A stretch of 64,000 bases of DNA from an uncultured Selenomonadales bacterium (lineage in GTDB: Bacteria; Bacillota; Negativicutes; Acidaminococcales; Acidaminococcaceae), in assembly GCA_900315345.1 (NCBI GenBank), contig OMYP01000007.1, positions 186,001 through 250,000 of the forward strand. The letters are read 5' to 3'. The notes beneath the pieces were generated by a model that worked only from the letters and a program-made list of their open reading frames with translations, searched no databases and was not told where the DNA came from. Position 1 is the first letter of the stretch, and the number at the start of each line of letters is the position of its first letter. The translations under genes were made by a program, and so were the position numbers. Below, piece by piece: positions 4,640 to 63,852 of this stretch.

Positions 4640-4788
4640 TTATGCGGCAAGGAAAAGGCGTGAGCAAACCGTCGGAGGCGATTGCGTTATTCCATGAGAT
4701 GAAATTCGCCGTCGTGGCGAGACTGTTTGAGGGGCGAAGCCCCGAGTTTCGAAGCCACAGGCGAATGAGTCCATGGAATAGCAATCGT
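4640..4788. repeat. Structured hairpin repeat, copy 1 (149 bp, 111-nt hairpin core)
   Basis: The core at 4678-4788 folds as nested stems GCGATTGC/GCAATCGT, ATTCCATG/CATGGAAT, ATTCGCC/GGCGAAT, TGGC/GCCA and an apical GGGGC-gaa-GCCCC. The 38 bp before the core are shared with copy 3 (63704-63852) but not with copy 2. The outer closing pair is G-U here, A-U in copy 2 and G-C in copy 3. The repeat is open in several frames, which yields spurious ORFs. Confidence 0.92.
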
Positions 4789-56898: not shown

Positions 56899-58098
56899 TT
56901 ACGCTTCTTTCATAAACGCCGCCAGTTTTTCCGCTTTCTCTTTCCAATCTGCCGTGTATGGTGCCCCGCCCTGGGCGGAATCCTTTTTGCCGCCGCCCCG
57001 GCCGCCGAAAATCTCATTAGCCGCCGTTACGATTTTTTTGCAGTCCCCCACTGCGTTTTCACTGAGGCCGAACATGTAATTCACACGCTCCCCGCTGTGG
57101 TAAATGATAGCCGCCACCACATTGGGAACCGACATAAGCTGCTGCATCATAGCCTTGGCCGACTGGGCATCGTAGTCGTCCTCCACCACCGCGGCAATCT
57201 TACTGCCGCCTGCATTGACCGGAGCCGCTGCCAGGATCTTTTTCATTTTATCTTCCTGAATGATTTTGACAGCCGCCCGCAGCTTTTCCTTCAGCCCGGC
57301 GATCTCCCCTTCCATCCGCTCAATGGCTTCGCATACCCTTTCTTCTTTGGTGCTCAGCATATTGCCGGCTTCCTGAATATAGCGCATTTTTTTCCGGGCG
57401 TCTTCCAGAGCCCAGCGGCCGCACAGGAATTCCACCCTTGTGCCGCCCTTGTGCTTTTCAATTTTGGTAACTTTGATCAGTCCTACCACTCCGGTAGAAG
57501 TAGGATGGGTGCCGCAGCAGGTGCAAACATCCCCGTCTTTTACCGCCACAATCCGCAAAATGCCGGTGAGTTTGTCATTTTTCTTCCGCATGGGAAGGTC
57601 CGCCACTTCCGTATGGGGCAGGTAGGAAACCGTAACCGGCAAATCCTCCCACACCTGTCTGTTGGCAAAATCCTCCGCCTGAAAGGCTTCCTCCAACGTC
57701 ACTTCTTTGTCCAGATCGATGGTCACCAGGCGTTCGTTCATGTGGAAGCCCACATTGTTGGCGCCAAACAGTTTAAAAAACGCAAAAGATAAAAGATGTT
57801 CCCCGCAGTGCTGCTGCATGTGGTCCAGCCGGTCCGTCCAGTTCACCTGCACCGTAACCTTGCTGCCCACCGGAAATTCCGCCGCGCAGTTATGGATGAT
57901 CTTCTCTTTGGTTTCCCGCACATAGTCCACCAGCGCTCCGTTGATGGTTCCCGTATCGCTGAGCTGGCCGCCCCCTTCCGGGAACAACACTGTCCGGTCC
58001 AGCACCACAGCAAAACCTTTGGGAGCCGGCTCACACTCCAGCACCGTGGCTTCGCAGATTTTTAAATTTGAATCCCTCTCATATAATTTTTCGGTCAT
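56899..58098 (-). CDS. Alanyl-tRNA editing protein, AlaX-L type with DHHA1 domain
   Basis: The protein has 399 residues. It resembles the editing half of AlaRS: the OB-like start (VVLDRTVLFPEGGGQLSDTG), the zinc site with MQQHCGEHLLSFA (HxxxH) and CCGTHP (Cys and His), then a coiled coil and a C-terminal DHHA1 domain (ISAAV-type VAAIIYHSGERVNYMFGLSEN and GGRGGGKKDSAQGG). It hydrolyses Ser-tRNA-Ala or Gly-tRNA-Ala. There is no aminoacylation domain. It stands alone between dedA and the periplasmic protein gene. Confidence 0.93.
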   Translation of the reverse strand: MTEKLYERDSNLKICEATVLECEPAPKGFAVVLDRTVLFPEGGGQLSDTGTINGALVDYVRETKEKIIHNCAAEFPVGSKVTVQVNWTDRLDHMQQHCGEHLLSFAFFKLFGANNVGFHMNERLVTIDLDKEVTLEEAFQAEDFANRQVWEDLPVTVSYLPHTEVADLPMRKKNDKLTGILRIVAVKDGDVCTCCGTHPTSTGVVGLIKVTKIEKHKGGTRVEFLCGRWALEDARKKMRYIQEAGNMLSTKEERVCEAIERMEGEIAGLKEKLRAAVKIIQEDKMKKILAAAPVNAGGSKIAAVVEDDYDAQSAKAMMQQLMSVPNVVAAIIYHSGERVNYMFGLSENAVGDCKKIVTAANEIFGGRGGGKKDSAQGGAPYTADWKEKAEKLAAFMKEA

Positions 58099-61249: not shown

Positions 61250-63376
61250 TTACAGATGCAATACCCGGGCTTTGATTTCTTTCGTCTTGCCTACGTTCCA
61301 GAAATTTTCTCCCAGATATCCGCAGGTGCGGCGGGTCACGTTCATCTTAGCGTGGTCCTTGTTATGGCACTGGGGGCATTCCCACTCGTTGTCATCGTTG
61401 ATCATGATCTCCCCGTCATAGCCGCAGACCATGCAGTAGTCGGATTTGGTATTGAATTCCGCATACTGGATGTGGTCGTAAATAAACTGCACGGTAGCTT
61501 CCAGGGCTTTGGGGTTGTTCTGCATGTTGGGAATTTCCACATAGCTGATGGCGCCGCCGGAGGACAGCTTCTGGAATTCGCTTTCGAATTCGAATTTGGA
61601 GAAGGCGTCGATGTTTTCCCGCACGTCCACATGATAGGAATTGGTGTAATAGCCTTTATCGGTAATATCTTTAATGGTACCGAAACGTTCTTTATCAACC
61701 CGGGCAAAACGGTAGCACAGGGATTCCGCCGGAGTTCCGTATAAAGCAAAGCCGATGTTGGTCTCGGCCCTCCACCGGTTGCAGGTCTCCCGCAGATGCT
61801 TCATAACCCGCAGGGCGAAGTCCTTGCCTTCCGGCGTGGTATGGCTGCAGCCTTTCACTGCCTTGGTCATTTCATACAGGCCGATATAGCCCAGGGAAAT
61901 GGAAGAGTACCCGCCGAACAGATACTTGTCAATCTTCTCCCCTTTACCCAGACGGGCAATGGCGCCGTACTGCCAGTGGATGGGGCTTACGTCAGAGCGT
62001 ACGCCCAGCAGCGCGTTGTGACGGCACATGATGGCTTCGAAGCAAAGGGCCAGCCGTTCGTCCAGCAGCTTCCAGAATTTTTCTTCATCCCCGCCGGACA
62101 AAATACCGATCTGGGGCAGGTTGATGGAGACCACGCCCTGGTTAAAGCGGCCTTCAAATTTATAATTTCCGTTTTCATCCTTCCAGGGAGCCAGGAAGCT
62201 GCGGCAACCCATGGGGCTGAACACGTTGCCTTCGTAATTTTCCCGCATCTTCTTGGCGGAAATGTAATCGGGATACATCCGCTTGGCACTGCATTTTACC
62301 GCCAGATGGGTCAGGTAATCGTATTTACCGCCTTTCAGGCAGTTGTTTTCATCCAGCACATAAACCAATTTTGGGAAAGCCGGCGTTACGTAAACGCCCT
62401 TTTCGTTTTTAATTCCCTGCAGGCGCTGCCGGATGATCTCTTCGATGATCATGGCGTTTTCTTCAATATAGGGATCGTCTTCCCGCAGATACAGGAACAA
62501 CGTCACAAAAGGAGACTGACCGTTGGTGGTCATCAGGGTGTTGATCTGATACTGGATAGTCTGGACCCCGGCCTTCAGTTCTTCCCGCAGCCGTTCGTCC
62601 ACCACGGCTTCCAGAATTTTCGGGTCAACATTTTCGCCCAGGGTCTCAATGGCCCGTTTCATAAATTTATCCCGGCTCCGGCGCAGGTATTTGCCCAAAT
62701 GACGCACATCCACAGACTGGCCGCCGTACTGGCTGGAAGCTACGGAAGCGATGATCTGGGTCATCACGTTGCAGGCAACCTGGAAGCTTCTGGGAGATTC
62801 GATCATCTTCCCGTTCATAACGGTGCCGTTATCCAGCATGTCCCCGATGTTGATCAGGCAGCAGTTGAAGATGGGCTGGATAAAATAATCCATGTCATGG
62901 AAATGAAGTACCCCTTCTTCATGGGCTTTGGCGATCTTTTCCGGAAGGATCACCCGGCGGGTCAGATCCTTGGAAACTTCCCCGGCGATCAGATCCCGCT
63001 GGGTAGAAGCCATGATGGCATTCTTGTTGCTGTTTTCTTCCATAACGTCCTTGTTGCTGTTACGGATCAGCGTAAGGATGGATTCGTCGGTAGTATTGGA
63101 CTTACGCACCAGGGCCCGGCGGTAACGGTAAATGATATAGGCCTTGGCCAGATCGAACTTGCCCGCTTCCTGAAGCTGGCGCTCTACAATGTCCTGGATA
63201 TCCTCCACCAGCAGGCGGGGACGGTTTTTCCCGTGGACGTATTCCGCAATTTCCTTAATTTTACTTTCCTCAATGCGGCATCCCTCTTCTACTGCAGCGT
63301 TTGCCTTTTCAATGGCCACCACAATTTTCTGGGGATCAAAATCAACCGTCGTACCGTCGCGTTTAATTACCTTCAT
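61250..63376 (-). CDS. nrdD: Anaerobic ribonucleoside-triphosphate reductase (class III)
   Basis: The start at 63376 (MKVIKRDGTTVDFDPQKI) has GGGAGG upstream; it gives 708 residues. The 56 extra codons to 63544 are leader and promoter. The N-terminal ATP-cone is followed by the ten-stranded barrel. Near the C-terminus are four zinc cysteines (CMVC and CPQC) and the glycyl-radical motif RTCGYLGENFW. It makes deoxyribonucleotides without oxygen. Two promoter candidates, NrdR-like boxes and three DnaA boxes lie upstream. Confidence 0.97.
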   Translation of the reverse strand: MKVIKRDGTTVDFDPQKIVVAIEKANAAVEEGCRIEESKIKEIAEYVHGKNRPRLLVEDIQDIVERQLQEAGKFDLAKAYIIYRYRRALVRKSNTTDESILTLIRNSNKDVMEENSNKNAIMASTQRDLIAGEVSKDLTRRVILPEKIAKAHEEGVLHFHDMDYFIQPIFNCCLINIGDMLDNGTVMNGKMIESPRSFQVACNVMTQIIASVASSQYGGQSVDVRHLGKYLRRSRDKFMKRAIETLGENVDPKILEAVVDERLREELKAGVQTIQYQINTLMTTNGQSPFVTLFLYLREDDPYIEENAMIIEEIIRQRLQGIKNEKGVYVTPAFPKLVYVLDENNCLKGGKYDYLTHLAVKCSAKRMYPDYISAKKMRENYEGNVFSPMGCRSFLAPWKDENGNYKFEGRFNQGVVSINLPQIGILSGGDEEKFWKLLDERLALCFEAIMCRHNALLGVRSDVSPIHWQYGAIARLGKGEKIDKYLFGGYSSISLGYIGLYEMTKAVKGCSHTTPEGKDFALRVMKHLRETCNRWRAETNIGFALYGTPAESLCYRFARVDKERFGTIKDITDKGYYTNSYHVDVRENIDAFSKFEFESEFQKLSSGGAISYVEIPNMQNNPKALEATVQFIYDHIQYAEFNTKSDYCMVCGYDGEIMINDDNEWECPQCHNKDHAKMNVTRRTCGYLGENFWNVGKTKEIKARVLHL

Positions 63377-63548: not shown

Positions 63549-63622
63549 ATTGTAGCATGTTCCGCAGTGCTTGTAAACTATATATTGTTGTCTGTAATAA
63601 AAATTTTCTTTTTTGCTGTCAA
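63549..63622 (-). promoter_or_regulatory. Two candidate nrdD promoters
   Basis: P1: minus-strand TTGACA (63617-63622), 17-bp spacer, TATTAC (63594-63599). P2: TTTACA (63572-63577), 17-bp spacer, TACAAT (63549-63554). They are 45 bp apart. Confidence 0.65.
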
Positions 63623-63632
63623 TATCTTGTGG
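63575..63632. promoter_or_regulatory. Pair of NrdR-like boxes
   Basis: AAACTATATATTGTTG (63575-63590) and TGTCAATATCTTGTGG (63617-63632) both fit the CWATATMTTGT core. They are 42 bp apart, four helical turns. One overlaps the -35 of P1 and the other the -35 of P2. Confidence 0.65.
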
Positions 63633-63648: not shown

Positions 63649-63679
63649 TGTGGATAACGTGTGGATAAGGTGTGGATAA
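63649..63679. promoter_or_regulatory. Three tandem DnaA boxes
   Basis: TGTGGATAA, the exact complement of the consensus TTATCCACA, occurs at 63649, 63660 and 63671, all in one orientation and 11 bp apart. They lie between nrdD and hairpin repeat copy 3. Confidence 0.85.
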
Positions 63680-63703
63680 ATTGAGATTTATCTGTGACTA
63701 AAT

Positions 63704-63852
63704 TTATGCAGCAAGGGAAAGGCGTGAGCAAACCGTCGGAGGCGATTGCGTCATTCCATGAGATGAAATTCGCCGTCGTGGCGAGACTGTTTGAGGGGCG
63801 AAGCCCCGAGTTTCGAAGCCACAGGCGAATGAGTCCATGGAATAGCAATCGC
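63704..63852. repeat. Structured hairpin repeat, copy 3 (149 bp, 111-nt hairpin core)
   Basis: The core at 63742-63852 has the perfect outer stem GCGATTGC / GCAATCGC and the same nested inner stems as copy 1. The 38-bp left flank also matches copy 1. It lies between the DnaA boxes and the next gene, and contains no supported gene. Confidence 0.93.

What the first reader, a model, noticed from the sequence alone, without database searches (positions are those of the whole stretch)
63649..63679. Three perfect DnaA boxes in helical phase upstream of nrdDG
TGTGGATAA occurs three times at 11-bp spacing, all on one strand. A chance cluster of three exact 9-mers in 31 bp is very unlikely. DnaA control of ribonucleotide reductase is known for the aerobic class Ia genes of E. 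coli; a class III operon with such a cluster would tie dNTP supply in an anaerobe to replication initiation. A DnaA-titration or reactivation site is another reading.
Basis: partly seen in the sequence, partly recalled or inferred. Interest (0 to 1): 0.72.

Follow-up and report, generated by a model that had tools for sequence, protein, structure and literature searches.

The report
DnaA-box array at nrdD promoter
An anaerobic bacterium carries a conserved row of binding sites for the replication-starter protein DnaA just upstream of the promoter of the enzyme that makes its DNA building blocks, which suggests that building-block supply is tied to DNA replication; similar wiring is known in E. 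coli, so this is a new variant rather than a new kind.

Summary
In detail: three perfect TTATCCACA sites (minus strand, the nrdD coding strand) at 11-bp steps, 273-303 bp before nrdD. They belong to a mostly four-site, head-to-tail, helically phased array found in all 10 same-genus genomes that hold this nrdD (of 14 searched), absent from 37 of 37 other nrdD upstreams in the family and, as an array, from 40 of 40 sampled elsewhere in the class. The array sits at a near-fixed distance from two NrdR-like boxes and a promoter, while the leader behind the promoter varies threefold. Three genomes without nrdD also lack this array but keep other DnaA arrays; in one genome nrdD is no longer beside its usual neighbour and still has the array. 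The origin, by gene order, is on another contig. The genome has no class I/II reductase match. Best reading: a DnaA-plus-NrdR promoter module for class III ribonucleotide reductase. Precedent: E. coli DnaA binds upstream of nrdD at a 2-bp-spaced double box (ChIP-seq, PMC11317965). So: a lineage-specific variant of a known kind. Binding and the sign of the effect are untested. A second conserved DnaA array, between malQ and uxaE, is a better titration/reactivation candidate.

The parts
63671..63679 (-). DnaA box 3 (distal of the three), TTATCCACA
   Evidence: exact match
63660..63668 (-). DnaA box 2, TTATCCACA
   Evidence: exact match; a box with at most one mismatch at the same offset (-34 to -36 from NrdR-like box A) in all 6 other genomes of the 94-96% group, counting TTGTCCACA in G005 and TTATCCCCA in G006
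63649..63657 (-). DnaA box 1 (promoter-proximal), TTATCCACA
   Evidence: exact match; a box at offset -23 to -26 from NrdR-like box A in all 6 other genomes of the 94-96% group (TAATGCACA in G005), at -12 to -15 in the three genomes of the 85-86% group
63693..63701 (-). degenerate fourth box TTAGTCACA, 22 bp upstream of box 3
63617..63632 (-). NrdR-like box A, CCACAAGATATTGACA
   Evidence: consensus scan, 11 of 16 positions; conserved in position in the genus
63575..63590 (-). NrdR-like box B, CAACAATATATAGTTT, 42 bp from box A start to start, overlapping the -35 hexamer
   Evidence: consensus scan, 13 of 16 positions
63549..63577 (-). promoter TTTACA-17-TACAAT with TG before the second hexamer
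   Evidence: a comparable site at the same distance from NrdR-like box A in 10 of 10 genus members, weakest in G007 (8 of 12 matches)
61250..63376 (-). nrdD, class III (anaerobic) ribonucleoside-triphosphate reductase, 708 aa
60595..61146 (-). nrdG, reductase-activating protein, 183 aa
63861..63889 (-). terminator-like hairpin behind the upstream transporter gene, between it and the nrdD promoter
   Evidence: consensus only

Best explanation
The segment is the upstream part of the nrdDG promoter of an anaerobic bacterium of the Negativicutes (family with Phascolarctobacterium and Acidaminococcus). DnaA binds cooperatively to head-to-tail boxes on one face of the helix, about 70-125 bp upstream of the -35 hexamer, and adjusts transcription of the class III reductase together with NrdR, the dATP-sensing repressor whose two boxes lie between the array and the -35. 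Replication state (amount and nucleotide state of DnaA) would be one input to dNTP supply and the dNTP pool (through NrdR) the other. Shown here: the array, its conservation in the genus, its near-rigid geometry, its absence where nrdD is absent, its presence where nrdD has another neighbour, and the lack of a class I/II reductase match in the window's genome. Inferred: that DnaA binds, that it affects nrdD transcription, and the sign. My guess on sign: moderate DnaA occupancy helps the promoter or counters NrdR, while high ATP-DnaA represses, as described for E. coli nrdAB.
For: 33 box-like 9-mers (at most one mismatch outside position 5) in the 80 bp upstream of NrdR-like box A in 10 genomes, against a shuffle mean of 0.59 and maximum 5 in 1000 shuffles; none on the opposite strand; spacings concentrate at a 10.25-10.5 bp period. 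Box A to the -35 is 54-56 bp in all 10 genomes, while -10 to ATG ranges from 57 to 179 bp. The proximal box starts 25 bp from box A in five genomes, 23 and 26 in two, and 10-13 bp nearer in the other three. Ten of 10 genomes with nrdD have the array; in G001, G003, G011 (98, 99, 93% complete) the transporter gene runs straight into the alaX-like gene, nrdD and array both missing, while other arrays remain; these three form a nested clade (100/100; joined with two nrdD-bearing genomes at 95/93). In G005 nrdD (contig C135) is not beside the transporter gene (C71) and still has the array. NrdR found in 13 of 14 genomes; DnaA with complete HTH domain. No PF02867 match (class I/II) in the own genome. 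E. coli precedent: DnaA ChIP-seq peak upstream of nrdD with a double box of 2-bp spacer, and a general preference for boxes 2-3 bp apart (PMC11317965, passages); the window's boxes are exactly 2 bp apart.
Against: No binding or expression data. Outside the genus, 0 of 37 family nrdD upstreams have even one TTATNCACA within 600 bp, so DnaA input is dispensable for nrdD control in general. The second class III operon, nrdG2-nrdD2 on contig C18, has an NrdR-like box but no DnaA box, and three genomes appear to live with that one alone. The array lies far from the promoter (proximal box starts 80 bp upstream of the -35), further than typical activator sites. The absence of array and gene in G001, G003 and G011 is one contiguous loss in one clade, so it cannot prove function. 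G005 and G007 have one exact TTATCCACA each; their other boxes carry a mismatch, and G007's spacing departs from whole turns. NrdR-like box A scores only 11 of 16.
Confidence: 0.74

Rival explanations
1. The array is a DnaA titration or reactivation element (datA- or DARS-like) that merely happens to lie upstream of nrdD and controls the DnaA pool, not the gene.
For: Clustered head-to-tail consensus boxes are also what such elements look like; the upstream gene is closed by a terminator-like hairpin, so the interval could hold a separate element.
Against: Array to promoter distance is near-rigid in 10 of 10 genomes while leader length varies; the array is at nrdD even where its neighbour has changed (G005) and absent where nrdD is absent; the genus has a better candidate, the malQ-uxaE array, kept by genomes without nrdD.
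Confidence: 0.13
2. The boxes are part of the replication origin.
For: Multiple boxes in one orientation occur at origins.
Against: dnaA with dnaN, recF, gyrB on one side and rpmH, rnpA, yidC, jag, mnmE, gidA, rsmG, noc, soj, parB on the other, with DnaA boxes in the dnaA-dnaN gap, is on contig C29 (dnaA by models, the other names by my reading of the translations); GC skew stays negative in all 16 bins of the window; the array is absent from three genomes. The assembly is in 32 contigs, so the distance to the origin is unknown.
Confidence: 0.02
3. The 9-mers bind something other than DnaA, or are a short tandem repeat made by slippage without function.
For: In the window three copies follow each other at 11 bp, as a minisatellite would; no binding data exist.
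Against: Spacers differ among copies and species while 9-mers and offsets are kept, with spacings of 11, 20 and 21 bp in relatives; the same 9-mers cluster at dnaA-dnaN and noc-soj; the reversed pattern gives 0 pairs in 14 genomes against 59.
Confidence: 0.08

Closest known systems
E. coli nrdDG (class III) promoter with a DnaA ChIP-seq peak (PMC11317965, passages read)
   Same: class III reductase operon; DnaA boxes with a 2-bp spacer upstream; two NrdR boxes at the promoter (PMC12176259, passages read)
   Different: E. coli has one consensus and one poor box at nrdD and two further reductase operons; here three to four phased boxes, NrdR-like boxes four turns apart instead of three, and no class I/II match in the window's genome
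E. coli nrdAB (class Ia) promoter with DnaA and NrdR (PMC8203912 and PMC12176259, passages read; original papers not read)
   Same: DnaA and NrdR inputs on one reductase promoter; DnaA can activate or repress by level and nucleotide state
   Different: other reductase class and phylum; in E. coli the DnaA effect is measured, here there is sequence only
Proposed DnaA control of reductase genes in Bacillus subtilis and Caulobacter (named in PMC8203912; originals not read)
   Same: DnaA linked to reductase transcription outside enterobacteria
   Different: reductase class not stated in the passages read (I recall class I); box arrangement not compared
datA and DARS1/DARS2 loci of E. coli
   Same: clusters of DnaA boxes away from oriC
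   Different: here the cluster is locked to one promoter and absent where the gene is absent

Membership tests
DnaA-regulated ribonucleotide reductase promoter | two or more DnaA boxes close together upstream of a reductase gene | tested here: met
DnaA-regulated ribonucleotide reductase promoter | boxes conserved as boxes in relatives | tested here: met
   10 of 10 same-genus genomes with nrdD; not met beyond the genus: 0 of 37 in the family, 0 of 40 with two or more boxes in the class sample
DnaA-regulated ribonucleotide reductase promoter | DnaA occupies the sites in cells | not testable with these tools
   needs ChIP-seq or footprinting
DnaA-regulated ribonucleotide reductase promoter | transcription changes with DnaA level or state | not testable with these tools
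   needs reporter or RNA data
NrdR regulon | two NrdR boxes spaced by whole helical turns near the promoter | tested here: met
   41-43 bp start to start (42 in the window: a 26-bp spacer, four turns); PMC12051234 (passages) reports repression at 15-17 and at 26 plus or minus 1 bp; box A is a weak match, 11 of 16
NrdR regulon | nrdR gene in the genome | tested here: met
   G000:C10:23346-23783, E 1.7e-60; 13 of 14 genus genomes
NrdR regulon | NrdR binds and represses | not testable with these tools
   needs binding and reporter assays
datA/DARS-type locus | box cluster kept independently of the neighbouring gene | tested here: not met
   absent with nrdD in G001, G003, G011; with nrdD in G005 although the neighbour differs
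datA/DARS-type locus | changes ATP-DnaA level or initiation timing | not testable with these tools
   needs deletion and flow cytometry
replication origin | location at the dnaA-dnaN-gyrB region or skew switch | tested here: not met

The most novel reading that the evidence does not exclude
In this genus DnaA and NrdR may be wired to each other in both directions: at the nrdD promoter replication state feeds dNTP supply, and at a conserved array of DnaA boxes (126-160 bp) between malQ and uxaE, flanked by an NrdR-like box at a near-fixed place on one side and a weaker one on the other, the dATP sensor NrdR would act on a DnaA titration or reactivation site, so that dNTP supply feeds back on initiation.
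Probability: 0.1. Interest if true: 0.85.

Novelty: new variant of a known kind. Interest (0 to 1): 0.5.

Why it matters
How bacteria match dNTP supply to replication is studied mostly for the aerobic enzymes. Here is a genome without a class I or II reductase match whose class III operon carries an unusually clean, phased DnaA array joined to an NrdR pair, seen in one genus and lost with the gene in one clade. If DnaA binds, the question becomes testable on one defined promoter, with natural absence, relocation and spacing variants as ready controls.

Tried and rejected
Reading as oriC: rejected by gene order on C29 and by steady skew. Reading as a free-standing titration site: made less likely. 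A broad claim that class III operons in general carry DnaA arrays: rejected. Some of the 78 are the same contigs as family members, so the sets overlap. In the class sample 8 of 40 have a single TTATNCACA and 0 of 40 have two; 40 of the 54 non-family genomes with nrdD were fetched, 14 were left out to save calls.

A first scan of the genus loci was wrong because loci on the minus strand had not been turned; one search replaces it. The anchors for NrdR-like box A were picked by eye, with least certainty in G006 and G007. The loci of the class I/II-type gene in G007, G008 and G010 showed no box pair, but they reach only part of the upstream DNA. Papers: PMC1951866 and PMC1200305 are not held, so the original prediction of DnaA boxes at E. 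coli nrdD and the B. subtilis regulon paper were not read. Searches for prior reports; none listed a DnaA array at nrdD in Negativicutes, but only open-licence papers are held and only titles and abstract starts were seen in the listings.

Full report
What is there. The window's genome (G000, 2.3 Mb in 32 contigs; the window is C8:186001-250000) carries nrdD (minus strand, ATG at 63376) and nrdG. Upstream of nrdD, read in its own direction, come a degenerate DnaA box, three perfect boxes TTATCCACA at 11-bp steps, NrdR-like box A, NrdR-like box B overlapping the -35, and a promoter TTTACA-17-TACAAT with TG before the second hexamer. The next gene upstream is on the same strand (I read it and its neighbours as an ECF-type transporter; no NCBIfam model matched this subunit) and is closed by a terminator-like hairpin.

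More than chance. Exact TTATCCACA occurs 31 times in the genome against 5 for the reversed pattern. Random placement of 31 sites gave no such triplet in 200,000 trials. In the 14 genomes of the genus the tandem pattern TTATNCACA-N(1-13)-TTATNCACA occurs 59 times, its reversed control 0 times. In 59 genomes of the family the reversed control occurs once.

What the arrays are elsewhere in the genus. Of the 30 array loci fetched, 29 could be placed by tblastn: the dnaA-dnaN gap, the noc-soj gap, the malQ-uxaE gap (or malQ side of it), and the nrdD promoter; one (L123) stayed unplaced. The nrdD array is thus one of a handful of DnaA-type arrays per genome, next to those at replication and segregation genes.

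Conservation. Fourteen genomes of the genus were searched; 10 hold this nrdD, 4 do not (G001, G003, G004, G011; G004 is only 73% complete). All 10 have at least one exact TTATCCACA and at least two sites with one mismatch or less outside position 5 in the 80 bp before NrdR-like box A; 8 of 10 have strict TTATNCACA pairs. The typical array has sites at -77, -56, -36 and -25 from box A; the window's species has -69 (degenerate), -47, -36 and -25. In the three genomes of the 85-86% group there are two sites (G007 has a further poor one) and they lie 10-13 bp nearer. Thirty-three sites were found against a shuffle mean of 0.59, all on one strand. These genomes are related, so counts are not independent events.

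Geometry. Start of box A to start of the -35 is 54-56 bp in all 10, but the end of the -10 to the ATG ranges from 57 to 179 bp. The two NrdR-like boxes are 41-43 bp apart start to start, 42 in the window, i.e. a 26-bp spacer, at which NrdR still represses in published assays (PMC12051234, passages). A module of near-fixed geometry in front of a leader of free length is what a promoter-bound regulator needs and a titration site does not.

Natural experiments. In G001, G003 and G011 the transporter gene is followed within about 30 bp by the alaX-like gene that in the window lies beyond nrdG (56899-58098); the stretch with array, nrdD and nrdG is missing (alaX-like by its domains). These three form one clade inside the genus (100/100; joined to G009 and G012 at 95/93; one 654-column gene tree), so gene and array were most simply lost together once. 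They keep the soj-side arrays (G001, G003, G011) and the malQ-uxaE arrays (placed by tblastn for G001 and G003; in G011 recognised by identical sequence only). In G005 the transporter gene is on contig C71 without boxes and nrdD is on C135 with them, so the array goes with nrdD, not with the neighbour; C135 starts 567 bp upstream of nrdD, so the new neighbour was not identified.

Limits of distribution. In the rest of the family 0 of 37 nrdD upstreams have TTATNCACA within 600 bp (two of these upstreams were cut at 269 and 367 bp), although most have NrdR-like boxes, and none of the arrays found there lies at the nrdD coordinates (searches compared by hand). In the class sample 0 of 40 have two boxes; 8 of 40 have one, in two lineages. 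The array is therefore a gain in this genus, or a retention lost elsewhere; a gain is simpler.

Physiology. The window's genome has no match to the class I/II catalytic domain PF02867; only G007, G008 and G010 of the genus do. It has a second class III operon, nrdG2-nrdD2 on C18, with an NrdR-like box and no DnaA box. nrdR was found in 13 of 14 genomes. DnaA is ordinary, with a complete helix-turn-helix domain.

Comparison with the known. DnaA control of E. coli nrdAB is established, and control of reductase genes has been proposed for B. subtilis and C. crescentus (PMC8203912, passages). For class III, DnaA was found by ChIP-seq upstream of E. coli nrdD at TTAAGAACA-gg-TTATCCACA, and DnaA prefers pairs 2 or 3 bp apart (PMC11317965, passages). 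A 2025 study found NrdD overexpressed in an E. coli strain lacking DARS2 in slow growth (PMC12371093, passages). So the idea that DnaA touches class III reductase is in print. What is added here is a stronger and phased array in another phylum, coupled to a four-turn NrdR pair, in a genome without a class I/II match, with natural absence and relocation as controls. I file it as a new variant of a known kind.

What is not shown. That DnaA binds, that it changes nrdD transcription, and in which direction. The genus name was not established; the closest named records are uncultured Selenomonadales isolates RUG140 and RUG113; Succiniclasticum is a guess from recall.

Noticed in passing
G000:C4:13247-13415 (L005 5248-5416; L121 1484-1652): A conserved element between malQ and uxaE: 5 to 7 strict DnaA boxes over 126-160 bp in similar geometry in 10 of 10 genomes examined, with an NrdR-like box at a near-fixed place on the malQ side (mean best score 12.2 against 8.7 shuffled, 0 of 200 shuffled sets as high) and a weaker one on the other side (10.6 against 8.7, 0 of 200). 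Kept also in G008 and G010, where no uxaE was found in the fetched stretch. Candidate datA- or DARS-like locus.
   Followed up: partly
G000:C29:23331-23360 (L004 15332-15361): Closely packed DnaA boxes between noc and soj, seen in other genus members too; Soj is known (recalled) to act on DnaA in B. subtilis.
   Followed up: no
G000:C18:88537-92208 (L112): Second class III reductase operon, nrdG2-nrdD2 (nrdD2 open frame about 860 aa, about 30% identical), with a strong NrdR-like box and no DnaA box; the only reductase found in G001, G003 and G011.
   Followed up: partly
L016, L035, L071, L077 (and a variant in L034), about 150-210 bp upstream of nrdD: In a group of Clostridia an inverted pair TTATCGACA ... 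TGTGGATAA, 23 bp apart start to start, overlaps an NrdR-like box; may be an extended NrdR site rather than DnaA boxes.
   Followed up: no
L200, L202, L218 and L204, L205, L206, L208, L209, 195-250 bp upstream of nrdD: A single TTATTCACA or TTATACACA in the same orientation in two other lineages of the class (8 of 40 upstreams).
   Followed up: partly
window 63789-63838 and 4725-4774: Two copies of a palindrome-rich dispersed element, one between the transporter gene and the array, one near the window's start; similar sequence stands at the same place in G006 and G012.
   Followed up: no
leaders of nrdD in G002, G005, G012 (L101, L092, L091): A further NrdR-like box 83-132 bp before the ATG, downstream of the promoter.
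   Followed up: no
G002:C88:11577-13671: nrdD is found as two pieces (residues 1-347 and 385-708): a gap, a frameshift or an assembly fault.
   Followed up: no
G009:C24:41829-41859 (L123) and G005:C252:7178-7208: An identical pair of boxes 22 bp apart start to start at a place not identified here.
   Followed up: no
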